64,000 nt of DNA, from assembly GCA_032622095.1 (NCBI GenBank), contig CP136068.1:124069989-124133988 (forward strand), in the 5' to 3' direction. This document shows, in pieces, positions 17,115 to 64,000 of this stretch (its first letter is position 1; each line of letters begins with the position of its first letter). This stretch comes from Siphonodentalium dalli (Eukaryota; Mollusca; Scaphopoda; Gadilida; Siphonodentaliidae). A model generated the notes under the pieces. It ran no database searches, was not told the origin of the DNA, and saw only the letters and a program-made list of their open reading frames with translations. The translations under genes were made by a program, and so were the position numbers.

Positions 17115-18019
17115 AATGTCTATGGGATAACTACTCTTCAATGATGCTTTAGTATAGAAAGGGTTAAACTTATTATCTGAACATTTCCTATGGGATAACT
17201 ACTCATCAATGATGCTTTAGTAATGAAAGGGTTAAACTTATTATCTGAACATTTCCTATGGGATAACTACTCTTCAACGATGCTTTAGTATAGAAAGGGT
17301 TCAACTTATTATCTGAACATTTCCTATGGGATAACTACTCTTCAATGTTTCTTTAGTATAGAAAGGGTTCAACTTATTATCTGAACATTTCCTATGGGAT
17401 AACTACTCGTCAATGATGCTTTAGTATAGAAAGGGTTCAACTTATTATCTGAACATTTCCTATGGGATAACACTCTTCAATGTTTCTTTAGTATAGAAAT
17501 GGTTCAACTTATTATCTGAACATTTCCTATGGGATAACTACTCGTCAATGATGCTTTAGTATAGAAAGGGTTCAACTTATTATCTGAACATTTCCTATGG
17601 GATAACTACTCTTCAATGTTTCTTTAGTATAGAAAGGCTTAAACTTATTATCTGAACATTTCCTATGGGATAACTACTCTTCAATGTTTCTTTAGTATAG
17701 AAAGGGTTCAACTTATTATCTGAACATTTCCTATGGGATAACTACTCTTCAACGATGCTTTAGTATAGAAAGGGTTCAACTTATTATCTGAACATTTCCT
17801 ATGGGATAACTACTCTTCAATGTTTCTTTAGTATAGAAAGGGTTCAACTTATTATCTGAACATTTCCTATGGGATAACTACTCGTCAATGATGCTTTATT
17901 ATAGAAAGGGTTCAACTTATTATCTGAACATTTCCTATGGGATAACTACTCTTCAATGTTTCTTTAGTATAGAAATGGTTCAACTTATTATCTGAACATT
18001 TCCTATGGGATAACTACTG
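17115..18019. repeat. 68-bp minisatellite, about 13 units
   Basis: The marker 'acatttcctatggg' recurs at 17181, 17249, 17317 and onward at 68-bp steps to about 17996. Units fall into subtypes (tcaatgatgcttta, tcaatgtttcttta, tcaacgatgcttta), showing homogenisation in blocks. A single unit in opposite orientation occurs at 35962-36030 in the paralogous intron, the apparent progenitor. The array ends inside truncated CTLD exon 2. Confidence 0.92.
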
Positions 18020-31234: not shown

Positions 31235-34200
31235 GTATGTGAAAGACTCCGGTAGGGTGATTAAATAGAAATGGGTGATAACATCGTTAAAAGTAGTTAC
31301 TTTAACAGATATTAAATCCAAACTGACAACACACACCGTCATTATTATATATTAATTAAATTCAGTGACTCTCGATGTCGAAATCATTTTCGTTACTTTA
31401 TCGTCGATAGTTGCGTACCGAATTGAGAAGTTAATATTTACCATTGAGCGTAGTTCAGATGATGTTTTCTATGGAATGGTATGGTAGATTTGCTTGAGAT
31501 TTTCGGCGATGTAGTAAAGTGCTACATTTCTCATGTTGGCATAGTGCCTTAATACTAATTTAACAGTTTAACGTACCCGAACAAGTCCATAATATGTCTT
31601 TAAGCTCACAGCTGAACCAGTCTGCTTCTACCAAAATTTGTATGTTAGTAATTGCATTATTTTGTATAATAGACTAAAAAGATACAAATAAGATTTGAGG
31701 ACAATTTCTTTAAACTAATTTAAACAAAAAACAATGTTTTTAAAGGCACGGGCGGCGTTCGTCGCAGAAATATTCATATTTGTTCAAATCGCCATCAACA
31801 GAAGGAATATTAAAATATATATAGTTTTGTTCATATGCCAAACATAATCAGCGCGTAAATAGTATATTGTCGTCAATACGTACGATTGTGTACGTAAACA
31901 AGAGCTTGTTCGTGTTACAGAAGTTGTGCTTCTGTTTACATAACACAGCGCAATTCTATTGGTTAATCACACACAAATGATATAAACGCTCTTTATTATT
32001 TCCATATCAGGAAAACAGTAACAAATAACGCTCTTTGTGTTTACCATTTCCGGATCTAAACAAAAGCCAGGTAACATAACGTTTTTTTTGCTTTTGTTTA
32101 CATAACAAAGGACAACAAATTTACAATAACGTACTGCTTATACCATATTTCTGATTGGTATCAGAACAAAGTAGGTCTATATTTGATTATTCTTTCTGTT
32201 TATGGCGGTTTTTGACGGAGGTGAATATTTTAACAGCATATACCCACCGCCAACACCGCCAGTATCTTTAAAATATGAATTTGTGAAAAGTGTCAATTTT
32301 GAAAAGTGTCAATTTTGAGACTTCGTGACTTTGAATTCCCCCCCCCCATCATTAATACTTACTAGCTCTGTGACTTATCATATACACAACACCATGTCTA
32401 AACACCAGGTTTAGACACCTGGATAGGCATATATGACATCCCGGTGTTTTAAAACGTGGTGCCTTAAACCCGGGTTTTTATACATCCTGTCGTGCTAAAC
32501 CCGGATTTTTAACATCATGGGACCTTAAAACCCGTTTTTAGTTATAAGTGGCGTGGCACTTAGTGGTGAGGTGTGGTGGACGTTGCACATTTGAGTAAAG
32601 TGTGCGCTATAAGTGAAGGTGGCACTTTTTTAGTGCATTGTGCGTTATAAGTTGGCGTGGCACTTTTTTTAGTGCAGTGTGCGTTATAAGGCAATTTTGA
32701 GTAAAGTGTGCGTTATAAGTGGGCATGGCGCTTTTTTAGTGCAATGTGCGTTATAAGTGGGCGTTGGCACTTTTTTAGTGCAGTTGTGCGTTATAATCGG
32801 GCGTGGCACTTTTGAGAAAAGTGTGCGTTATAGATGGGCGTGGCAGTTTTGAGTAAAGTGTGCGTTATAAGTGGGCGTGGCACTTTTTTATTCCAGTGCG
32901 TATTATAAAAGGGCGTGGTATTTTTTAGTAAAGTGTGCGTTATAAGTGGGCGTGGCACTTTTTAGTGCAGTGTGCGATATAAGTGGCAGGCACTTTTGGG
33001 TAAAGTGTGCGTTGTAAGTGGGCGTGGCACTTTTGAGTAAAGTGTGCGTTATAAGTGGGTGTGGCACTTTTTAGGGCAGTGTGCGTTATAAGTGGGCGTG
33101 GCACTTTTTTTAGTGCCCTGTGCGTTTCACATCACTTTAAGGTGTTGTTGAATAATTGTCGATAGAAACCAGCCTCTTAATTGTTCGCTGTTAAATGGTT
33201 GCAGGCGGATACTTGTATATATTTGCATATGTTATACAATGGGCGTGTTATGTATACAGGAGCGTGGGTGACATTTATTTAGCTGTTTTTGCATCAGGTG
33301 ATTTGCCGTGTCTTGAAAATAGAATTGTTTTTTCCTCATGTACTGTAACAGCAATGTTTACATAACAATGGTTTCGACATGCGAAATGTCATTATGGGAG
33401 CTATTAATAATGAAAATAAGAACAAATTCGATCTATATATCATGTACTTGTTGATGCCATGCAGTTGTTTTTATAAAACAAATGTATGTTATTATCCATC
33501 TCTTAACTGACACTATTTCTGATTGGACAAAAGCCACCACGTGATAATCCGGGAATGCTTTTTGTGATGCTACTGTGATAAACTGTATTTATAGTATATA
33601 GCAACTCTCCACCAATGGAGGACAAGCCATTTCAGACCAAAATTTGGACCAAAGGTAGAAAAATATGCTACTGTTGGTCTAAAAACAAATGGGAAATATT
33701 CTACATATATGTTGTATAAAATACTCCCTGTCTCTTATGACGCATCTCATCTTTAACAATCTTAAAGATGTCCCATATCCGATTTGACTTTCTATTGGCC
33801 TAGCACTTGTCGCGAAGGCCATTATAGGCCCATTTAATTTTTGAGTCACCGATTATTTTTTGTATTAGTGCCTTGATATACGGTTTAAAATAAAATCCCA
33901 GACATAAAATATGATTAAAATACCATAATTCATCAGCATTTGGAACGTATGTGTCTCAGAAGGTGCCCATAGCGTAATATAAAATAGCTGAAATCATATA
34001 GAAACATTTGCCCCGTTTCGCTCCAAGAATGCAACATAATTCAAAGTAAGATATAGAGTTATTCACCTTCCATTGAAAATAATTAACTTTGCAGAACAGT
34101 CTAGATGAATCTTAAAGGCACGTGAGGCCTTAGTTGTCGAAAATATTCATATTTGTTCCAATCACCGTAAACAGAAAAACATTAAAACGCATACAGTTTC

Positions 34201-41739: not shown

Positions 41740-43640
41740 ATTCCGTCGGAGGACTAGAGTAAAGAGACGCGTCCGTGCGTCCGTCCATCCGCCCGGAACT
41801 TTGTCCGAGCCTGTATCCTGTCATTTTTTTTAAAGTTGACACATATATCAACCTGTGATTTTCCGGTCGGTCGGACTCATTTTGGCTGAGTTATTGCCCT
41901 TTTCGACATATAATCGTACATCCAGGGACGCACCTTTTGTCCGCGCCTCTATATTCCGTCATTTCCCAGTCAATTTGTTTTAAAACTTGGCACAGTTGTC
42001 AAACAGCATGGGAACATGCGCACATGCGATTTTGAGATCAATCGGAGTCATTTTGACGGAGTTATTGCCATCATTCGACATAGAAATGTTTTATGTCTTT
42101 TATTTTAGAGTTATTGAGTTATCCTCGACACACTGAAGATGTGCAACATAGTACACATTTGGACTTTGTATCATATTGGTGTAATCAAATCCTCCTACAG
42201 TTTGTAGTATAGGGATCTGAAACCCATAAATCCTCCAAACCTGCCACCTTCGTCGGGGGACATTTGGTCAGCAAAATTTTATTTCTTTTGCCCGGTGAGC
42301 ATACCTCCGGTGATGTATGAGGCTTGTGTATTATATACATATGTGTATCGCATGGATATACACGCGCAAAACTTGTTCATTCTTTTGTGTCCGCAAGACA
42401 GTGTCCGCAAGACAGTGTCGTGTTTTGGGCGATCGGTCGTCCACATCAGTTGACACTCATCGTCCTATATATAGGTTGATACTCATCGTCCTATATATAG
42501 GTTGCACACCGTGACAGTCGGTCGTCCACATCAGTTGATACTCGTCGTCCTATACATAGGTTGCACGCCGTGACAGTCGGTCGTCCACATCAGTTGATAC
42601 TCGTCGTCCTGTATATAGGTTGCACGCCGTGACAGTCGGTCGTCCACATCAGTTGATACTCGTCGTCCTATATATAGGTTGCACGCCGTGACAGTCGGTC
42701 GTCCACATCAGTTGATATTCGTCGTCCTATATATAGGTTGTACGCCGTGACAGTCGGTCGTCCACATCAGTTGATACTCGTCGTCCTATATATAGGTTGT
42801 ACGCCGTGACAGTCGGTCGTCCACATCAGTTGATACTCGTCGTCCTATATATAGGTTGCACGCCGTGACAGTCGGTCGTCCACATCAGTTGATACTCGTC
42901 GTCCTATATATAGGTTGCACGCCATGACAGTCGGTCGTCCACATCAGTTGATACTCGTCGTCCTATATATATAGGTTGCACGCCGTGACAGTCGGTCGTC
43001 CACATCAGTTGATATTCGTCGTCCTATATATAGGTTGCACGCCGTGACAGTCGGTCGTCCACATCAGTTGATATTCGTCGTCCTATATATAGGTTGCACG
43101 CCGTGACAGTCGGTCGTCCACATCAGTTGATACTCGTCGTCCTATATATAGGTTGCACGCCGTGGCAGTCGGTCATCCACATCAGTTGATACTCGTCGTC
43201 ATGTATATAGGTTGCACGCCGTGATAGTCGGTCGTCCACATCAGTTGATACTCGTCGTCCTATATATAGGCTGCACGCCGTTACAGTGCATGTGATTAGC
43301 TGGAATACATGGCCGTGTTCATTGGCTGCATAATCTACAAGATCTGTACGCCGAAAATGGAAAATAATGTGCAATATCCAAAGAAAAGAGCGTCCATATT
43401 CGCAATTGACCAATTTTCATGAAATTTGACCAACCGCTACATCTGACTTTGCAATACAACTGTCAATCTCAATGCCAATCTATAATACCCGAGGTCAGCA
43501 AATGATGATCCTATAATTATCAAACAATCACACCATATACAGCGAGACAATGGTCAGTCGTGGCTACACGCACAACGTATGGCAAAACACACAAACAACA
43601 CTTCTCGTGTGCGTTGCTTGAGAATATGCACAGTATATAT
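41740..43640 (+). repeat. Dispersed repeat, inverted partner of 6.56-7.65 kb
   Basis: Includes two diverged ~150-bp subunits at its left ('gtccgagcctgtatcctgtcatt', 'acttggcacagttgtc', 'acggagttattgcc') and the 59-bp minisatellite at its right. The first 20 codons of the 143-codon frame of the partner are recognisable near 43551, but the frame is broken here. Confidence 0.75.
42440..43285. repeat. 59-bp minisatellite, about 14 units
   Basis: Unit: ttgatactcgtcgtcctata + tataggttgcacgccgtgac + agtcggtcgtccacatcag. Most units are near-identical; a few carry cattcg or 'tataggttgatactc' short-unit variants near the left edge. Each unit includes the palindrome cctatatatagg. Only one unit is present in the partner repeat (about 6930-7010). 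Confidence 0.93.
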
Positions 43641-43825: not shown

Positions 43826-44055
43826 ATAAATTGTTCTTCGACATGGATGCGCTTGACTCCCGTTGACGGTCAAATTGTTCTTCGACAGGAGGTACTTGAT
43901 GCCCACTGAGTGACAAATTGTTCTTCAACATCGATCTACGTGACACCCTTGAGGGACAAATTGTTCTTCGACAGGAAGGTAGCTGACCCCCGCTGAGTGA
44001 CAAATTGTTTTTCGAGATGGATGCACTTGACACCCGTTGAGGGACAAATTATTTT
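43826..44055. repeat. ~44-bp minisatellite, about 5 units
   Basis: 'caaattgttcttcgacatgg' + 'atgcacttgacacccgttga' repeated at 43-44 bp steps (about 43828, 43872, 43915 and on), with alternating second halves ('gtacttgatgcccactgagt'). Confidence 0.85.
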
Positions 44056-54100: not shown

Positions 54101-54197
54101 AATACAGAGACTCTATATGTATACCCCCTCTGCCATGTTTCTAGTTATCAGTCACATGGCTATTATATTAATTGACAACCTGTGATTAGAATTGTTA

Positions 54198-54772
54198 TCT
54201 CATATATATTTTTGAAGACCTCTGTTTGTCTGTCTGTCTGTCTGTGTGTCTGTCTGTCTGTATGTCATTTATACAAATCTACGATTCTCGGCCGATCGGG
54301 ACGAAACTTGGTACGTGTGTGTAGTTTGACCAGGCGGTGGACGTTGTCGCATTGGCGAGCCCGTGCGGCGCCCGCTTCGTGCATGCGCAGACGAGATCTC
54401 GGAAACGGGTGGAGCTATCGACTTGAAATTTGCTATGTGAATGTATCTTGCCCCGGATACGAATTTTATCGGGTCGCCGAGCCAGTGCGACGCCAGCTTC
54501 GCGCATGCGCAGATGAGATCTCGGAAACGGGTGGAGCTATCGACTTGAAATTTGCTATGTGAATGTATCTTGCCCCGGATACGAATTTTATCGGGTCGCC
54601 GAGCCCGTGCGGCGCCAGCTTCGCGCATACGCAGACCAGATCTCGGAAACGGCTGGAGCTATCGATTTGAAATTTGTTTTTTGAATAGCCCGAACAACAT
54701 CGGGCTGGGTAGAGCTATCGACTTGAAATTGGGTTTTTGAATAGCCCGGACAACGTCGGGCTCATCGGCTAG
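54198..54772 (+). mobile_element. Helitron 1, family A (non-autonomous)
   Basis: Starts A|TCTCATATATATTTTTGAAG after host A (54197). It contains a CTGT microsatellite and two to three near-repeats of 'agatctcggaaacgggtgga'. It ends with the hairpin GCCCGGACAACGTCGGGC, then TCATCGG, then CTAG (54769-54772). A 5' TC, a 3' hairpin about 8 nt before CTAG, and insertion between A and T are the classical Helitron features. A second internal hairpin (gcccgaacaacatcgggc, 54688-54707) marks an older internal end. Confidence 0.85.
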
Positions 54773-55720
54773 TCTCATATATATTTTGAAGACCTCTGTC
54801 TGTTTGTCTGTTTGTCTGTTTGTCATTTATACAAATCTACGATTCTCGACCGATCGGGACGAAACTTGGTACGTGTGTGTAGTTTGACCAGGCGGTGGAC
54901 GTTGTCGTATTGGCGAGCCCGTGCGGCGCCCGCTTCGCGCATGCGCAGACGAGATCTCGGAAACGGGTGGAGCTACCGACTTGAAATTTGCTATATGAAT
55001 GTATCTTGCCCCGGATACGAATTTTATCGGGTCGCCGAGCCCGTGCGACACCAGCTTCGCGCATGCGCAGACCAGATCTCGGAAGATTCTCGACCGATCG
55101 GGACGAAACTTGGTACGTGTGTGTAGTTTGACCAGGCGGTCAATATGAGCTCATCAGATTTCAGATCCGAGATCAACTTTTCACGTGCCGAGGTCAAATC
55201 TGTTTTTACGCCGTTTTGCGCTAATATATTTCAGTTCGGTGCTCACAAATCGATTCGATATAGCGCGAATAATAAATTGCCAGTCATATAATTTGCATGT
55301 GGCGCTTCCTCTTTCCAGCGATGTATCACACGCCTGTGTCCGTTTAAAGTTTCTACCTTAATTATCGGGAAGAACGCAGGACCATGATTCGGTCATCGAA
55401 AAGCATTCCGTAAATCTATTAGCCGTCAAGAGACGTGATCGCGTTTAACTCTTAACCGGCCGATGTCGCGTTAACTCATCACCGGCCGAGGTATCCGCAA
55501 ATGATATTGGGCAATATATATATCTCGGAAACGGGTGGAGCTATCGACTTGGAATTTGGTATGTGAATGTATCTTGCCCCGGATACGAATTTTATCGGGT
55601 CGCAGAGCCCGTGCGACGCCAGCTTCGCGCATGCGCAGACCAGATCTCGGAAACGGGTGGAGCTATCGACTTGAATTTTTTTTTTTGAATAGCCCGGACA
55701 ACGTCGGGCTCATCGGCTAG
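54773..55720 (+). mobile_element. Helitron 2, family A, with internal insert
   Basis: Begins TCTCATATATATTTTGAAGA on the base after the previous CTAG and ends in hairpin + CTAG at 55717-55720. The middle (about 55140-55515) is non-repetitive sequence ('caatatgagctcatcagatt ... gatattgggcaatat') between two family A fragments. This looks like captured or nested DNA. Confidence 0.82.
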
Positions 55721-56457
55721 TCTATCTATCTATTATATATTTTGGAAGATCTGTGTGTCTGTGTGTCTGTCTGTAATCGATGGACTCGAAAACGATCGAG
55801 CCGATTTCGATAAAACTTGGTATGTGGGGATATTTTCGGCCGGGGAGTGACATGGGCCTATTAATTTGCCCGTGCGACGTGACCTTGACCTTGAAATCGG
55901 GTAATTTCAAGGGCAAACGCCCGAATATCACGGGATTTCGATGAAACTTGGTATGTGGGGCTACTTTCAGCCGGGGAGTGGCATAAACCTATTAGTTTGC
56001 CCGTACGACGTGACCTTGACCTTGAATCGGGTCATTTCAAGGTCAAACGCCCGAATATCACGGGATTTTGATGAAACTTGGTATGTGGGGGTACTTTCGT
56101 ATGGGGAGTCTCATAAGCATATTCATTTGCCCGTGCGACGTGACCTTGACCTTGAAATCGGGTCAATTCAAGGTCAAATCGCGAATTTTGATGGGATTTC
56201 GACGAAATTTGATACGTAGGGTTACTTTTGTCCACTGAGTGTATTGGACGGGTCGAGTCGTGACCCCGACCTGACATTGACCTTCAAAATGATCAATTCG
56301 AGGTCAAATCGGGTAAAACCGGATGGATTTCGACGGGTACATTTGTCGGGTACTTTTGTCCGGGCAGTGTATTGGACTGGTCAAATCGTGACCCCACTTG
56401 ACCTTTAAAATGGACAATTCAAGGTCAAAGCCCGGACGAAGTCAGGTCACCTTCTAG
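55721..56457 (+). mobile_element. Helitron 3, family B
   Basis: Starts TCTATCTATCTATTATATAT and ends 'cccggacgaagtcaggtcac' + CTTCTAG (CTAG 56454-56457). The body is about four ~130-150 bp subrepeats: 'atttcgatgaaacttggtat', 'cccgtgcgacgtgaccttga', 'caaggtcaaac'. Confidence 0.78.
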
Positions 56458-57585
56458 TCTATACTATATATTTTGAGACTTCGTATATATGTATGTGTGT
56501 GTGTGTGTGTGTGTACTTCATAGAATCCAAAACGCGTGTACATATTGAGCTCAAACTTCCTATGTAAGTGTCAAATCCCACCGACACGACCGTGGTCGCG
56601 GTTTAGAGAAGCTCAGAGCACCCGTTCTCCAATCTCAAATCACCGCAAAGGCACGGCGTGGGTTAATCAAGTGATCATTTAATGAGCGTTTGTTTTTTAC
56701 GCATCTCTATAAAGAGCGTCTGTTTGCCATTCAACGTTATTTGCATCTGCAGAGAGATATACGGAACATACATTAAATTTAAAAAACATTTGTTTCTGAC
56801 CAACCCTGCGAGCACGGATGGCGCGCTTTGTTTTTACAGTATATAGTTATATACCGAAATCATCCCAGATAATCACGAATATAGCATCAGATTTCTCCCA
56901 GATATACCGTTATAAAGCTACTGGAATCAGCCAATCTACGGGAAATTCCAGGAAATGCCGATTGAGCTCAAACTTGCTACCCACGGGAAGTGCCATATAT
57001 ATGAGTGTGTCCTTTATAGACTCGAACCGATTGAGCTCAAACTTGCTAAATAAGAAAATAGCCCCCAAGCCGTAAATATCAACAACGATATTACTAAATA
57101 CACGTTTTCGGCAATGTGAGAGTTTTCGGGGAGCCGTGATGCCAACAACAACGACCCGAAGCCCTGAATGCCAACAACAGATTCAATGCAATGTTATCTA
57201 TTATGCAGAGAGATTTCACGATATTACGACGGGTACGGCAGACTCAAAATATTATGCAGACAGATTTCCCGACGGGAAGCGTTTGTTTTAAATTCAATGC
57301 AATGTTATCGTAGAGAGATTTCACGAAACAAAGAATGCGTTGTCTGTCGTTCCTAGGAAGGGGGGATTTCTACGGGTAAATTTTTCCGCCAGAAACAAAA
57401 AAATTAATTTAAACAATTTACAATTTAATTAAAACAATTTAAAATTAAAAAAAATTAACAATAAAAAAACAATTCAGAAACAAAATATATTAAATTTAAA
57501 AAACATTAAATTCATATTCAAAAATGTCATGTTTCTGAAACAAAGCCATGGGACGAATGCCGCCAGTGGCGGGCTAACCTGCTAG
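56458..57585 (+). mobile_element. Helitron 4, family C
   Basis: Starts TCTATACTATATATTTTGAG and ends with hairpin CCGCCAGTGGCGG, then GCTAACCTG and CTAG (57582-57585). Body has 'gattgagctcaaacttgcta' repeats and a (GT)n tract. Confidence 0.8.
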
Positions 57586-58049
57586 TCTATCTCATATATA
57601 TTTTGAAGACCTCTGTCTGAATGTATGTTTGTTTGTTTGTTTGTTTGTCTGTCTGTCTGTCTGTCATTTATACAAATCTACCATTCTCGACCGATCGGGA
57701 CGAAACTTGGTACGTGTGTGTAGTTTGACCAGGCGGTGAACGTTGTCGTATTGGCGAGCCCGTGCGGCGCCCGCTTCGCGCATGCGCAGACGAGATCTCG
57801 GAAACGGGTGGAGCTATCGACTTGAAATTTGCAATGTGAATGTATCTTGCCGCGGATACGAATTTTATCGGGTCGCCGAGCCCGTGCGACGCCAGCTTCG
57901 CGCATGCGCAGACCAGATCTCGGAAACGGCTGGAGCTATCGATTTGAAATTTGTTTTTTGAATAGCCCGAACAACATCGGGCTGGGTAGAGCTATCGACT
58001 TGAAATTGGGTTTTTGAATAGCCCGGACAACGTCGGGCTCATCGGCTAG
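57586..58049 (+). mobile_element. Helitron 5, family A
   Basis: Starts TCTATCTCATATATATTTTG and ends hairpin + CTAG at 58046-58049. Its last part is identical to the end of Helitron 1. Confidence 0.78.
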
Positions 58050-58110
58050 TCTCATATATATTTTGAAGACCTCTGTCTGTTTGTCTGTTTGTCTGTTTGT
58101 CATTTATACA
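58050..58110 (+). mobile_element. Helitron 6, first 60 bp only
   Basis: Begins exactly as Helitron 2 (TCTCATATATATTTTGAAGA...) and is cut at 'tttataca', where the second copy of the 4,004-bp block begins. Confidence 0.75.
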
Positions 58111-58201
58111 GAGACTCTATATGTATACCCCCTCTGCCATGTTTCTAGTTATCAGTCACATGGCTATTATATTAATTGACAACCTGTGATTAGAATTGTT
58201 A

Positions 58202-58776
58202 TCTCATATATATTTTTGAAGACCTCTGTTTGTCTGTCTGTCTGTCTGTGTGTCTGTCTGTCTGTATGTCATTTATACAAATCTACGATTCTCGGCCGAT
58301 CGGGACGAAACTTGGTACGTGTGTGTAGTTTGACCAGGCGGTGGACGTTGTCGCATTGGCGAGCCCGTGCGGCGCCCGCTTCGTGCATGCGCAGACGAGA
58401 TCTCGGAAACGGGTGGAGCTATCGACTTGAAATTTGCTATGTGAATGTATCTTGCCCCGGATACGAATTTTATCGGGTCGCCGAGCCAGTGCGACGCCAG
58501 CTTCGCGCATGCGCAGATGAGATCTCGGAAACGGGTGGAGCTATCGACTTGAAATTTGCTATGTGAATGTATCTTGCCCCGGATACGAATTTTATCGGGT
58601 CGCCGAGCCCGTGCGGCGCCAGCTTCGCGCATACGCAGACCAGATCTCGGAAACGGCTGGAGCTATCGATTTGAAATTTGTTTTTTGAATAGCCCGAACA
58701 ACATCGGGCTGGGTAGAGCTATCGACTTGAAATTGGGTTTTTGAATAGCCCGGACAACGTCGGGCTCATCGGCTAG
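58202..58776 (+). mobile_element. Helitron 7, family A (copy of Helitron 1)
   Basis: Same ends as Helitron 1 at offset 4004, with the same preceding host A. Confidence 0.8.
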
Positions 58777-59724
58777 TCTCATATATATTTTGAAGACCTC
58801 TGTCTGTTTGTCTGTTTGTCTGTTTGTCATTTATACAAATCTACGATTCTCGACCGATCGGGACGAAACTTGGTACGTGTGTGTAGTTTGACCAGGCGGT
58901 GGACGTTGTCGTATTGGCGAGCCCGTGCGGCGCCCGCTTCGCGCATGCGCAGACGAGATCTCGGAAACGGGTGGAGCTACCGACTTGAAATTTGCTATAT
59001 GAATGTATCTTGCCCCGGATACGAATTTTATCGGGTCGCCGAGCCCGTGCGACACCAGCTTCGCGCATGCGCAGACCAGATCTCGGAAGATTCTCGACCG
59101 ATCGGGACGAAACTTGGTACGTGTGTGTAGTTTGACCAGGCGGTCAATATGAGCTCATCAGATTTCAGATCCGAGATCAACTTTTCACGTGCCGAGGTCA
59201 AATCTGTTTTTACGCCGTTTTGCGCTAATATATTTCAGTTCGGTGCTCACAAATCGATTCGATATAGCGCGAATAATAAATTGCCAGTCATATAATTTGC
59301 ATGTGGCGCTTCCTCTTTCCAGCGATGTATCACACGCCTGTGTCCGTTTAAAGTTTCTACCTTAATTATCGGGAAGAACGCAGGACCATGATTCGGTCAT
59401 CGAAAAGCATTCCGTAAATCTATTAGCCGTCAAGAGACGTGATCGCGTTTAACTCTTAACCGGCCGATGTCGCGTTAACTCATCACCGGCCGAGGTATCC
59501 GCAAATGATATTGGGCAATATATATATCTCGGAAACGGGTGGAGCTATCGACTTGGAATTTGGTATGTGAATGTATCTTGCCCCGGATACGAATTTTATC
59601 GGGTCGCAGAGCCCGTGCGACGCCAGCTTCGCGCATGCGCAGACCAGATCTCGGAAACGGGTGGAGCTATCGACTTGAATTTTTTTTTTTGAATAGCCCG
59701 GACAACGTCGGGCTCATCGGCTAG
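58777..59724 (+). mobile_element. Helitron 8, family A (copy of Helitron 2)
   Basis: Same structure as Helitron 2, including the non-repetitive insert, at offset 4004. Confidence 0.8.
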
Positions 59725-60461
59725 TCTATCTATCTATTATATATTTTGGAAGATCTGTGTGTCTGTGTGTCTGTCTGTAATCGATGGACTCGAAAACGAT
59801 CGAGCCGATTTCGATAAAACTTGGTATGTGGGGATATTTTCGGCCGGGGAGTGACATGGGCCTATTAATTTGCCCGTGCGACGTGACCTTGACCTTGAAA
59901 TCGGGTAATTTCAAGGGCAAACGCCCGAATATCACGGGATTTCGATGAAACTTGGTATGTGGGGCTACTTTCAGCCGGGGAGTGGCATAAACCTATTAGT
60001 TTGCCCGTACGACGTGACCTTGACCTTGAATCGGGTCATTTCAAGGTCAAACGCCCGAATATCACGGGATTTTGATGAAACTTGGTATGTGGGGGTACTT
60101 TCGTATGGGGAGTCTCATAAGCATATTCATTTGCCCGTGCGACGTGACCTTGACCTTGAAATCGGGTCAATTCAAGGTCAAATCGCGAATTTTGATGGGA
60201 TTTCGACGAAATTTGATACGTAGGGTTACTTTTGTCCACTGAGTGTATTGGACGGGTCGAGTCGTGACCCCGACCTGACATTGACCTTCAAAATGATCAA
60301 TTCGAGGTCAAATCGGGTAAAACCGGATGGATTTCGACGGGTACATTTGTCGGGTACTTTTGTCCGGGCAGTGTATTGGACTGGTCAAATCGTGACCCCA
60401 CTTGACCTTTAAAATGGACAATTCAAGGTCAAAGCCCGGACGAAGTCAGGTCACCTTCTAG
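59725..60461 (+). mobile_element. Helitron 9, family B (copy of Helitron 3)
   Basis: Same ends and subrepeats as Helitron 3 at offset 4004. Confidence 0.76.
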
Positions 60462-61589
60462 TCTATACTATATATTTTGAGACTTCGTATATATGTATGT
60501 GTGTGTGTGTGTGTGTGTACTTCATAGAATCCAAAACGCGTGTACATATTGAGCTCAAACTTCCTATGTAAGTGTCAAATCCCACCGACACGACCGTGGT
60601 CGCGGTTTAGAGAAGCTCAGAGCACCCGTTCTCCAATCTCAAATCACCGCAAAGGCACGGCGTGGGTTAATCAAGTGATCATTTAATGAGCGTTTGTTTT
60701 TTACGCATCTCTATAAAGAGCGTCTGTTTGCCATTCAACGTTATTTGCATCTGCAGAGAGATATACGGAACATACATTAAATTTAAAAAACATTTGTTTC
60801 TGACCAACCCTGCGAGCACGGATGGCGCGCTTTGTTTTTACAGTATATAGTTATATACCGAAATCATCCCAGATAATCACGAATATAGCATCAGATTTCT
60901 CCCAGATATACCGTTATAAAGCTACTGGAATCAGCCAATCTACGGGAAATTCCAGGAAATGCCGATTGAGCTCAAACTTGCTACCCACGGGAAGTGCCAT
61001 ATATATGAGTGTGTCCTTTATAGACTCGAACCGATTGAGCTCAAACTTGCTAAATAAGAAAATAGCCCCCAAGCCGTAAATATCAACAACGATATTACTA
61101 AATACACGTTTTCGGCAATGTGAGAGTTTTCGGGGAGCCGTGATGCCAACAACAACGACCCGAAGCCCTGAATGCCAACAACAGATTCAATGCAATGTTA
61201 TCTATTATGCAGAGAGATTTCACGATATTACGACGGGTACGGCAGACTCAAAATATTATGCAGACAGATTTCCCGACGGGAAGCGTTTGTTTTAAATTCA
61301 ATGCAATGTTATCGTAGAGAGATTTCACGAAACAAAGAATGCGTTGTCTGTCGTTCCTAGGAAGGGGGGATTTCTACGGGTAAATTTTTCCGCCAGAAAC
61401 AAAAAAATTAATTTAAACAATTTACAATTTAATTAAAACAATTTAAAATTAAAAAAAATTAACAATAAAAAAACAATTCAGAAACAAAATATATTAAATT
61501 TAAAAAACATTAAATTCATATTCAAAAATGTCATGTTTCTGAAACAAAGCCATGGGACGAATGCCGCCAGTGGCGGGCTAACCTGCTAG
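60462..61589 (+). mobile_element. Helitron 10, family C (copy of Helitron 4)
   Basis: Same ends as Helitron 4 at offset 4004. Confidence 0.78.
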
Positions 61590-62027
61590 TCTATCTCATA
61601 TATATTTTGAAGACCTCTGTCTGAATGTATGTTTGTTTGTTTGTTTGTTTGTCTGTCTGTCTGTCTGTCATTTATACAAATCTACCATTCTCGACCGATC
61701 GGGACGAAACTTGGTACGTGTGTGTAGTTTGACCAGGCGGTGAACGTTGTCGTATTGGCGAGCCCGTGCGGCGCCCGCTTCGCGCATGCGCAGACGAGAT
61801 CTCGGAAACGGGTGGAGCTATCGACTTGAAATTTGCAATGTGAATGTATCTTGCCGCGGATACGAATTTTATCGGGTCGCCGAGCCCGTGCGACGCCAGC
61901 TTCGCGCATGCGCAGACCAGATCTCGGAAACGGGTGGAGCTATCGACTTGAAATTTGGTTTTTGAATAGCTATCGACTTGAAATTTAGTTTTTGAATAGC
62001 CCGGACAACGTCGGGCTCATCGGCTAG
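61590..62027 (+). mobile_element. Helitron 11, family A, distinct 3' end
   Basis: Shares its first part with Helitron 5. After 61934 it has its own tail with a short internal repeat ('gctatcgacttgaaattt' twice) before hairpin + CTAG (62024-62027). Confidence 0.78.
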
Positions 62028-62437
62028 TACTATATATTTTGATACAATCTGTTTGTCTGTCTGTATGTTTGTCTGTCCTTAATACAAATCTACGATTCAT
62101 GACCGATCGGGACGAAACTTGGTACGTGTGTGTAGTTTGACCAGGCGGTGGTCAACATCGTATTGGCGAGCCCGTGCGACGCCCGTGCAGCGCATGCGCA
62201 GACGAGATCTCGGAAACGGGTGGAGCTATCGACTTGAATTTGGCATGTGAATGTGTCTTGCGCCGGGTACAAATTTTATCGGGTCGCCGAGCCCGTGCGA
62301 CGCCAGCTTCGCGCATGCGCAGACGAGATCTCGGAAACGGGTGGAGCTATCTACTTGAAATTTGGCATGTGAATGTATCTTGCGCCTTGTACAAATTTTT
62401 CTTAAATAGCCCGGACAACGTCGGGTCCACCAGCTAG
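62028..62437 (+). mobile_element. Helitron 12, family A variant
   Basis: Begins TACTATATATTTTGATACAA (the usual 5' TC is altered) and ends 'gcccggacaacgtcgggtcc' + ACCAG + CTAG (62434-62437). More diverged than the others, so probably older. Confidence 0.72.
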
Positions 62438-62461
62438 TCTACTATATAATTTGAGACTTCC

Positions 62462-62517
<56 letters not shown>

Positions 62518-63191
62518 ATGTGTGTGTATATACTTTATACAATCGAAAACGGCTGGACCGATTGACCTCAAACTTCATATATGAGGGTAAAAGCACACGG
62601 GACGCGTCGTCGCGGCGTTTTGGAGAAGCTCCCAGCACCCGTTCTCCACTCTCAGTCACAAAAATGACCGTCCTTAGCACTGTGGGGTTAATCGCGTTGA
62701 TAGTTAAATATAGCGTTCGTATCCGCAGTGTCGTTGATAAATAGCGTATGCGTGTAGTGTGATTCTTACGTCTGGGTCCAGACGTGAGCGTGACTGTATC
62801 CAGACCTGAGCGTGTTGTGAGATTATTACGTACTTAGGGCTTCCTAGGAACGGGGGAGATTTTCATCGGGTCAGTTTTTCCGCCCGATGTGATCTTCACC
62901 TTGAAACGGGTACCCACAAATGATATATATTTGTGTGTCCTTTATAGACTCGAACCGATTGAGCTCAAACTTGCTACCTACAGGTACTTTTGTGCGGGAA
63001 GTGTCATGAACGGATTAAATTGTGACCCCGACCTGACCTTGACCTTGAAAATGATCAATTCAAGGTCAAATCGGGTAAAACTGGCGGATTTCTACACCTA
63101 GGTGCAGCATACGTGTCTCGGAAGCTGTTGCAATTGCTTTTTCGAACAAAGCCATGAGACGAACCACGCCAGTGGTGGGCTAACCTGCTAG
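62438..63191 (+). mobile_element. Helitron 13, family C
   Basis: Begins TCTACTATATAATTTGAGAC, contains a (TA)n/(TG)n tract (about 62463-62528), 'gattgagctcaaacttgcta' and 'tgaccttgaccttga', and ends 'acgccagtggtgggctaacc' + TG + CTAG (63188-63191) followed by host T. This closes the array. Confidence 0.76.
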
Positions 63192-63202
63192 TATATATAT
63201 AA

Positions 63203-63351
63203 AGGATCTCCAACGAGTTATGTTGGGATATAAGATTCTATGATACGGGTTTGATAAAGTTGATTCACAACGAGTCGTAGACGAGTAGTGAATCAAATTT
63301 ATCAAACGTGTTTCATAAAATCTTATATCCCAACATAACTAGTTGAAGATC
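63203..63351. repeat. Foldback, ~150 nt
   Basis: 'gatctccaacgagttatgtt' + 'gggatataagattctatgat' pair with 'atcttatatcccaacataac' + 'tagttgaagatc'; inner arms 'gtttgataaa' / 'tttatcaaac' and 'gattcac' / 'gtgaatc'. Confidence 0.8.
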
Positions 63352-64000
63352 TTGTATATCTCATGAAAAAAAAATAGAGCTTTATGCCTTTTTAACAAAT
63401 CTCTAGTCCTTAAAAGTAGTTTCAAAAAGTTTATATTTACAGCGTAGGCTGAGACACTTCACAACTGTATACGACAGTATTGCGCTCTGTGGTTGGCGAC
63501 GAACAATATAGTTCCCCAATTTATCTCTTTGTTTTTGTGTCTATTTTCGTTAGTGCAACGAACTTGGACAAAAATTTAACTTTAAAGAACAAAGCAATCG
63601 TTTTGCAGTTTCTGGTGTTGGTGTAATGCGCATCTTTTCGAAATAGTATTAATCCGCCTGGCTCAATGTAACGACGAAGCGCCGTCATTGTTTTGGCGCG
63701 ATGCCAAGTTTTATGTAGTACACGCCTATTCATCACTAGTGACAGATAAGGAAATATGTAATGGCTTTTTGAATGATATCATAGGGGTGATATATGCTGA
63801 TATCATACTTGCAAGTCGAAATGAAATTACTCACAATGAATTAACTGTCGATTAACTGGTTCAAAGGCACGCATTGTGAAATTCGAAAGTCGTGGGTATT
63901 ATACATCAGTGGAAGCCATATTCGAAATCACACAAGTATTTGGAATAATGTTCAGATGAACGGAATACACTATTAGGTTATCCTTAGAAATCAAGAGTAC
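63352..64000. other. No feature recognised at the right edge
   Basis: A 71-codon minus-strand frame (63521-63736) has no motif or splice context that would support it. Confidence 0.5.

What the first reader, a model, noticed from the sequence alone, without database searches (positions are those of the whole stretch)
54198..63191. Nine-kilobase unbroken head-to-tail array of short Helitrons from three families
Twelve complete elements, plus one fragment, follow each other in the same orientation. In most cases each CTAG 3' end is immediately followed by the 5' TC of the next, with no spacer; the only unrelated DNA is the ~96-bp flank carried by the duplication. Families A, B and C differ in body and in 3' hairpin, so this is not one expanded satellite: different Helitrons have repeatedly inserted at the T that follows an existing CTAG end, or multi-element units were mobilised together by read-through of the 3' terminator. 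The outer borders (A at 54197, T at 63192) fit normal A^T Helitron insertion. The sequence shows the ends; the Helitron features used (5' TC, 3' hairpin before CTRR, A^T target) are established knowledge; the mechanism is inference.
Basis: partly seen in the sequence, partly recalled or inferred. Interest (0 to 1): 0.8.

Follow-up and report, generated by a model that had tools for sequence, protein, structure and literature searches.

The report
Self-stacking Helitron transposon arrays
Short rolling-circle transposons in this large genome stand nose to tail without a gap, apparently because new copies often insert at or inside the front end of copies already there, and small leftover letters record the order in which some of them landed.

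Summary
The array is real: 12 complete elements and a 56-bp fragment at 54198-63191; 10 of 11 internal CTAG ends are followed at once by TC. It is not 12 separate insertions: 54102-57929 and 58106-61933 are identical (3,828 bp), so about seven founding insertions plus a local duplication explain it.

The elements meet the canonical Helitron tests I made (B's hairpin is degraded); intact RepHel frames exist, one between A-type ends inside another array. Joining is genome-wide: 11,875 of 17,889 exact A-family 3' ends (66%) run straight into another head.

The T after CTAG (G^T) is not the favoured site. Evidence favours independent insertion at A^T at, or inside, the 5' head of resident elements. 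Insertion at TCTA^TACTATATA leaves TCTA before the newcomer and a head lacking TCTA behind it. On C1, 21 of 35 A elements followed by such a remnant have a TCTA-preceded A head upstream, 3 downstream, 0 on the other strand. Tandem amplification is a real second mode, notably in C-type arrays (5 of 14 neighbour pairs at least 98% identical).

Head-to-tail Helitrons are known; scale and ordering footprint look new and bear on an open question (A^T or G^T).

The parts
54102..54197 (+). 96-bp unrelated 5' flank, repeated at 58106-58201; ends in A (5' base of an A^T target)
54198..54772 (+). A1, A-family Helitron (575 bp), TCTCATATATA head, GCCCGGAC..GTCGGGC hairpin, CTAG
54773..55720 (+). A2, A-family (948 bp) carrying a ~350-bp module shared with B-type elements elsewhere
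55721..56457 (+). B element (737 bp); head with two extra TCTA units (TCTATCTATCTATTATATA), for which I see no matching remnant downstream
56458..57585 (+). C element (1,128 bp), complete head TCTATACTATATATTTTGAG
57586..58049 (+). A3 hybrid (464 bp): A3 5' part joined to an A1 3' part (tract 57907-58110 identical to 54630-54833)
58050..58105 (+). 56-bp fragment identical to the A2 head; 5-bp overlap ATACA with the flank follows
58106..61933 (+). Second copy of 54102-57929, 3,828 bp, 100% identical (flank, A1b 58202-58776, A2b 58777-59724, Bb 59725-60461, Cb 60462-61589, start of A3)
61590..62027 (+). A3 (438 bp): leader TCTA + TCTCATATATA, inserted into the head of the next element
62028..62437 (+). 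A5 (410 bp): headless remnant TACTATATATTTTGATAC. Without A3 the head reads TCTA^TACTATATATTTTGATAC
62438..63191 (+). C2 (754 bp), C-related, outer 3' end CTAG followed by T

Best explanation
The array grew mainly by serial, independent insertion of non-autonomous canonical Helitrons, moved in trans by RepHel elements present in the genome. New copies land at A^T, and a favoured A^T is the 5' end of a resident Helitron: either the host A plus the first T of the element, giving a perfect CTAG|TC joint and restoring A^TC at the new 5' end, or an internal A^T in a C-type head (TCTA^TACTATATA), leaving TCTA in front of the newcomer and a remnant starting TACTATATA behind it. Arrays therefore grow at the 5' side of resident elements, and the TCTA surplus/deficit records order. 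In this window a later 3.8-kb local duplication accounts for five of the twelve elements. Shown: the ends, A^T flanks, genome-wide joints, directional TCTA pairing on C1, independence of A-A and A-B neighbours. Inferred: that RepHel uses resident 5' ends as targets (the same A^TC it cuts as donor), and that full-head joints also formed from the 5' side.
For: 66% (11,875 of 17,889) of exact A tails run directly into a head. TCTA-preceded A heads are 676 of 16,987 (4%), yet on C1 21 of 35 A-tail|headless-C joints have one within 1.2 kb upstream, 3 of 35 downstream, 0 on the opposite strand (binomial tail 5e-21 at p=0.04, 2e-11 at p=0.12, clustering of sites ignored). In sampled chains 24 of 31 deficits had an unmatched surplus upstream; within-chain shuffles averaged 15.6, 2 of 5,000 reached 24, reversed order gave 8. 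Neighbouring A-A pairs are no more alike (mean distance 0.064, n=15) than A copies of different loci (0.069); A and B of 18 A-B pairs do not co-vary. The less diverged A (median nearest-neighbour distance 0.043) lies upstream of B (0.093, first 350 bp) more often than the reverse: 2,016 A>B and 469 B>A exact joints, the B>A pattern being the shorter one. A^T flanks. RepHel frames.
Against: In C-type arrays 5 of 14 neighbouring pairs are at least 98% identical, so tandem amplification, or reinsertion beside the donor, is not rare there. An A>A age test showed no direction (5 upstream less diverged, 9 downstream, 1 tie). Surplus-then-deficit was significant over all successors (14 of 38 after a surplus, 9 of 72 after a native head, p=0.004) but not when successors were restricted to C/E heads (14 of 30 versus 9 of 29, p=0.17). 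7 of 31 deficits had no visible surplus; 14 of 35 C1 remnants lacked an exact TCTA-preceded A head upstream within 1.2 kb. Only 6 of 22 fetched TCTA+A loci had a remnant at the very next joint, 3 more at the one after. B heads also hold TCTA^T (A^TT), yet no CTAG|TTATATATTTTG was seen against 29 native B joints in the loci. The two surplus units of window B are unmatched. One A-A pair (0.013) and one pair of A-B loci look like copies. Exact-match counts bias all rates.
Confidence: 0.75

Rival explanations
1. Rolling-circle read-through or unequal crossing-over amplifies one unit or a multi-element unit in tandem; mixed arrays are decayed or recombined products.
For: Neighbouring C units at 100% identity (1125/1125/1123 bp in L005, 1140/1140 bp in L006), and pairs at 98.3% (L013) and 99.5% (L015): 5 of 14 neighbouring C pairs at 98% or more. 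A-B dimer satellite at C1:188.85 Mb: 7 of 8 dimers 98-99.9% alike. The window itself holds an exact 3.8-kb duplication.
Against: Adjacent A-A pairs are as different as copies of different loci; A and B of a pair do not co-vary; the directional TCTA pairing has no place in this model; tails and heads of a family should join equally often, but 66% of A tails and about a third of listed A heads are in joints.
Confidence: 0.15
2. New Helitrons insert at the T that follows an existing CTAG end (non-canonical G^T target), so arrays grow at the 3' side.
For: It gives the same CTAG|TC letters; it was one of two readings offered for a maize pair (PMC2267711, passages). The A>A age test does not exclude it.
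Against: Copies outside recognised joints use A^T. Remnants after TCTA^TA show insertion within the downstream head. The less diverged A family sits upstream of B more than downstream.
Confidence: 0.06
3. The TCTA surplus and deficit are microsatellite slippage at TCTA heads, unrelated to insertion.
For: TCTA is a short tandem unit; some leaders vary irregularly (TCTTCTATA, TATATATATATATATCTA); window B's two extra units have no partner.
Against: Surplus lies upstream of deficit (21 versus 3 on C1; shuffles), and surplus occurs on A heads, whose usual 5' end TCTCATATATA has no TCTA.
Confidence: 0.04

Closest known systems
[quoted passage not shown] 2008, PMC2267711; passages seen)
   Same: CTAG directly followed by TC, different bodies, so consecutive insertion; the A^T versus G^T question is stated there and left open.
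   Different: One pair there; over twenty thousand exact joints here, with remnants that show which element was entered.
Bat Helitron tandems (Pritham and Feschotte 2007; known to me only as quoted in PMC2267711)
   Same: Perfect head-to-tail joints.
   Different: Read there as tandem repeats; A-A and A-B neighbours here are unlike each other.
Rolling-circle amplified centromeric Helitrons of plants (Xiong et al. 2016; known to me as summarised in PMC12628747)
   Same: Tandem Helitron arrays; resembles the second mode here.
   Different: Truncated copies, many arrays with several 5' ends and one 3' end; here complete elements, each with both ends, of several families.
Self-insertion and tandem FoHeli-like elements in fungi (PMC5148889, passages)
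   Different: Helitron2/Helentron type and a single case; here TC/CTAG/A^T elements genome-wide.
Preference of maize HelA to insert near or inside other Helitrons (PMC3288121, passages, citing earlier work)
   Same: Helitrons as targets of Helitrons.
   Different: Exact targeting at the 5' end is not stated in the passages I saw.

Membership tests
Canonical Helitron (Helitron1) | 5' TC | tested here: met
   Heads TCTCATATATA, TCTATTATATA, TCTATACTATATA; 10 of 11 internal joints CTAG|TC; the exception is a remnant
Canonical Helitron (Helitron1) | 3' CTRR preceded by a hairpin | tested here: met
   CTAG at all 12 complete ends; hairpin predicted in A and A5; C has CCGCC-AGT-GGCGG by eye, not in the predicted fold; B hairpin weak and mutated
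Canonical Helitron (Helitron1) | Insertion between A and T, no target duplication | tested here: met
   18 of 19 A heads outside recognised joints follow A (one of them an array leader), 15 of 15 tails without a recognised head precede T; window A54197/T63192
Canonical Helitron (Helitron1) | RepHel (Rep + PIF1 helicase) partner with the same ends | tested here: met
   L026 frame of 1,614 codons with Helitron_like_N and PIF1; A-type head upstream, and the next recognised tail downstream (in L018) is A-type. L027 frame of 1,608 codons behind a C-type head, its 3' end not found
Canonical Helitron (Helitron1) | Rolling-circle, copy-and-paste movement via circles | not testable with these tools
   Needs cells or reads
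Helentron / Helitron2 | Insertion between T and T (recalled) | tested here: not met
   A^T flanks
Helentron / Helitron2 | Asymmetric terminal inverted repeats | not tested
   No systematic search made
Satellite DNA from one expanded unit | Neighbouring units more alike than distant ones | tested here: not met
   Not met for A-A neighbours (0.064 versus 0.069); met in some C arrays and in an A-B dimer array

The most novel reading that the evidence does not exclude
The Helitron transposase of this genome treats the 5' end of any cognate Helitron as its preferred target, because the A^TC it cuts as donor is also an acceptor. Every insertion restores that site, so Helitrons act as self-renewing landing pads: about two thirds of A-family copies stand directly before another Helitron, near-identical C neighbours could be copies reinserted at their own donor end, and the TCTA ledger makes the arrays readable as an ordered record of transposition.
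Probability: 0.48. Interest if true: 0.75.

Novelty: new variant of a known kind. Interest (0 to 1): 0.6.

Why it matters
How Helitrons come to stand head to tail has been left open between rolling-circle multimers, G^T insertion and A^T insertion (PMC2267711; PMC5876387; passages). This genome holds over twenty thousand exact joints plus internal remnants that give direction, so the question can be settled by counting. If donor ends double as targets, that constrains the RepHel mechanism and would help to explain Helitron clustering.

Tried and rejected
Rejected as the main process: one expanded satellite (for A; but 5 of 14 neighbouring C pairs are at least 98% identical); A-B as one composite transposon (18 pairs, Mantel r -0.15, with one pair of loci, L014 and L036, alike in both parts); insertion at G^T after CTAG; TCTA slippage only. 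Inconclusive: A>A age direction (15 pairs: 5, 9 and one tie). On C2 and C3, where only the narrower CTAG-prefixed list was at hand, TCTA+A heads lay within 1.2 kb upstream for 2 of 29 and 4 of 33 remnants, downstream for 0 and 0. Target mimicry by the TA tract was considered: 15 of 15 3' flanks without a recognised head (two of which may be Helitron remnants) have TATA within 14 nt, against 15% of A^T sites on the + strand of the window outside the array, and heads carry the same tract; but A^TC heads lack the A^TA seen in 12 of 15 flanks, and TA-tract sites, extrapolated from 54.6 kb, number about 4-10 million genome-wide, so mimicry alone seems too weak. In one search (hand-copied rows, first 13.6 Mb of C1) A>B was 11 and B>A 0; my joined lists caught 30 of 62 A-tail joints where one search lists 36, because B heads with other endings are missing. 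Organism not identified; the window's ORFs were not searched against any library.

Dropped rows and samples: G000 pattern searches list only the first 100 places, so all locus sampling is from C1 (apart from RepHel loci and L027). In one search, L002 and L028 (copies of other loci), internal E-like motifs of D elements and unclassified leaders were left out, D-type leaders were classed by hand, and the near-duplicates L048/L049 and both window copies were kept. One search used 18 A-B pairs after removing L002, L028, L049 and identical B parts. One search used 56 distinct complete A elements of 57. One search left out L002, L028, L049 and L062. In one search two unit ends (last unit of L011 and of L013) were set by me, not by a recognised joint.
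Full report
WHAT IS THERE. The window lies at G000:C8:124069989-124133988 in a 2.23-Gb, nine-contig assembly of an organism I did not identify. Between 54198 and 63191, twelve complete elements and a 56-bp fragment follow one another on the + strand. Ten of eleven internal CTAG ends are followed at once by TC; the eleventh, after A3 (62027), by TACTATATA. A at 54197 and T at 63192 frame the array. An exact 3,828-bp duplication (54102-57929 = 58106-61933) accounts for five of the twelve (four exact extra copies, one hybrid). Its inner junction carries a 204-bp tract identical to 54630-54833 and a 5-bp overlap (ATACA) with the flank, as a template switch would leave; an assembly artefact cannot be excluded without reads.

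FAMILY. Heads TCTCATATATA (A), TCTATTATATA (B) and TCTATACTATATA (C) and tails ending in CTAG, in A with a clear hairpin, are canonical Helitron ends (definition as in the passages of PMC6591975, and PMC13286980). In the loci fetched, 18 of 19 A heads outside recognised joints follow A (one of the 18, in L026, is really an array leader), and 15 of 15 tails without a recognised head precede T. PF14214 gave 151 matches in G000, with 150 of 457 candidates scored, so a lower bound; many lie in open frames over 1,600 codons. One, L026, has a frame of 1,614 codons with Helitron_like_N and PIF1, an A-type head upstream and, as the next recognised tail, an A-type tail in L018, and stands inside an array. 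A second, L027, has a C-type head; I did not find its 3' end.

SCALE. CTAGT-N{0,12}-TATATATTTTGA occurs 21,518 times, control 38. Exact A tails: 17,889, of which 11,875 (66%) run into a head. Exact A heads: 16,987; in the first part of C1 21 of 66 listed A heads had CTAG directly upstream, and 20 of 59 in a second count. B heads: 13,088; B tails: 16,112. These are exact-match counts and so lower bounds.

INDEPENDENT INSERTIONS, AND A SECOND MODE. For 18 A-B pairs, A distances and B distances do not correlate (r = -0.15), so A-B is not in general one travelling unit; one pair of loci (L014, L036) is alike in both parts. Fifteen adjacent A-A pairs differ by 0.064 on average (one by 0.013), A copies of different loci by 0.069, so they are mostly not recent tandem copies. 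C-type arrays differ: of 14 neighbouring pairs in six loci, 5 are at least 98% identical (L005 two and L006 one at 100%, L013 98.3%, L015 99.5%), the rest 46-94%. In L013 the near-identical pair carries the TCTA footprint (extra TCTA on the first, remnant on the second), so at least that one looks like a copy inserted into the head of its twin rather than a plain duplication (inference). An A-B dimer satellite stands near C1:188.85 Mb, 7 of 8 dimers 98-99.9% alike.

THE TCTA LEDGER. A3 in the window begins TCTA+TCTCATATATA, and the next element begins TACTATATATTTTGATAC. Taking A3 out gives TCTA^TACTATATATTTTGATAC, a complete C-type head with an A^T in it. So A3 entered the head of the element now downstream. 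This predicts that remnants (CTAG|TACTATATA) follow elements with extra TCTA. On C1, of 35 A-tail|remnant joints, 21 have a TCTA-preceded A head (96 listed on C1) within 1.2 kb upstream, 3 downstream and none on the opposite strand, although only 676 of 16,987 A heads are TCTA-preceded. In the sampled chains 24 of 31 deficits had an upstream surplus; shuffles within chains averaged 15.6, 2 of 5,000 reached 24, and reversing the order gave 8. Of 22 loci cut around CTAG+TCTA+A heads (two are near-copies of each other, and one lies in a locus already held), 6 had the remnant at the next joint and 3 more at the following one; 2 showed no further tail, and one had an unclear TACGTATATA. Against: restricted to C/E successors the pair test was not significant (p = 0.17), and on C2 and C3, with a narrower list, only 2 of 29 and 4 of 33 remnants had the head upstream (none downstream).

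DIRECTION FOR FULL-HEAD JOINTS. CTAG|TC could arise from the 5' side (A^T made of the host A and the T of TC) or the 3' side (G^T). A is the less diverged family (median nearest-neighbour distance 0.043 against 0.093 for the first 350 bp of B, 18 each) and stands upstream of B 2,016 times but downstream 469 times, the second pattern being shorter and so more permissive; 17 of the listed B>A joints are one dimer satellite. On the first 13.6 Mb of C1, B heads (22 of 46) are in joints more often than B tails (14 of 64), A tails (30 of 62 by my lists, 36) more often than A heads (20 of 59). This fits growth at the 5' side. The A>A age test gave no direction, so this step is inference supported by asymmetry, not proof.

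WHY HEADS ARE HIT. 3' flanks without a recognised head are T followed by a TA tract (15 of 15 with TATA within 14 nt; 15% of A^T sites in the window outside the array). C heads offer the same inside TCTA^TACTATATAT. The exact 5' end A^TC does not match the A^TA seen in 12 of 15 flanks, so I suggest, as inference, that RepHel's own 5' donor site serves as acceptor. No B remnant was seen (0 against 29 native B joints in the loci).

LITERATURE. Maize and bat head-to-tail pairs, plant tandem arrays and one fungal case are known (passages only; Xiong 2016 and Pritham and Feschotte 2007 were not read in the original). In the maize passages the choice between G^T and A^T is left open. Six searches of an open-access library (one search showed 30 of 397 papers) listed no title or abstract start that reports a TCTA-type ledger or this scale; I saw passages of nine papers. 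Most subscription papers are not held, so absence from print is not shown.

Noticed in passing
window 63197-63359: Foldback (80-nt arms, 85% complementary, 3 nt apart) begins 5 bp beyond the array's outer CTAG end.
   Followed up: partly
window 17120-18018: 68-bp tandem repeat, 13.2 copies, 94% matches.
   Followed up: no
window 42475-43287: 59-bp tandem repeat, 13.7 copies, 96% matches; a separate 44/87-bp array follows at 43828-44050.
   Followed up: no
window 32576-33110: 37-bp tandem repeat with 184-258-bp longer periods.
   Followed up: no
window 55140-55510 (A2), L004, L008, L010: A ~350-bp module inside A2 also occurs at about 87% identity in B-type elements: body modules are exchanged between Helitron families.
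   Followed up: partly
L062 (G000:C1:188852000-188861999): A-B Helitron dimer turned into a satellite: 17 listed B-tail|A-head joints at C1:188850295-188868841, spaced 1,055-1,197 bp, nine of them inside L062.
   Followed up: partly
L005 and L006 (G000:C1:5.78-5.81 Mb): C-type Helitron units repeated in tandem at 100% identity; by eye the two loci share flank sequence in opposite orientation.
   Followed up: no
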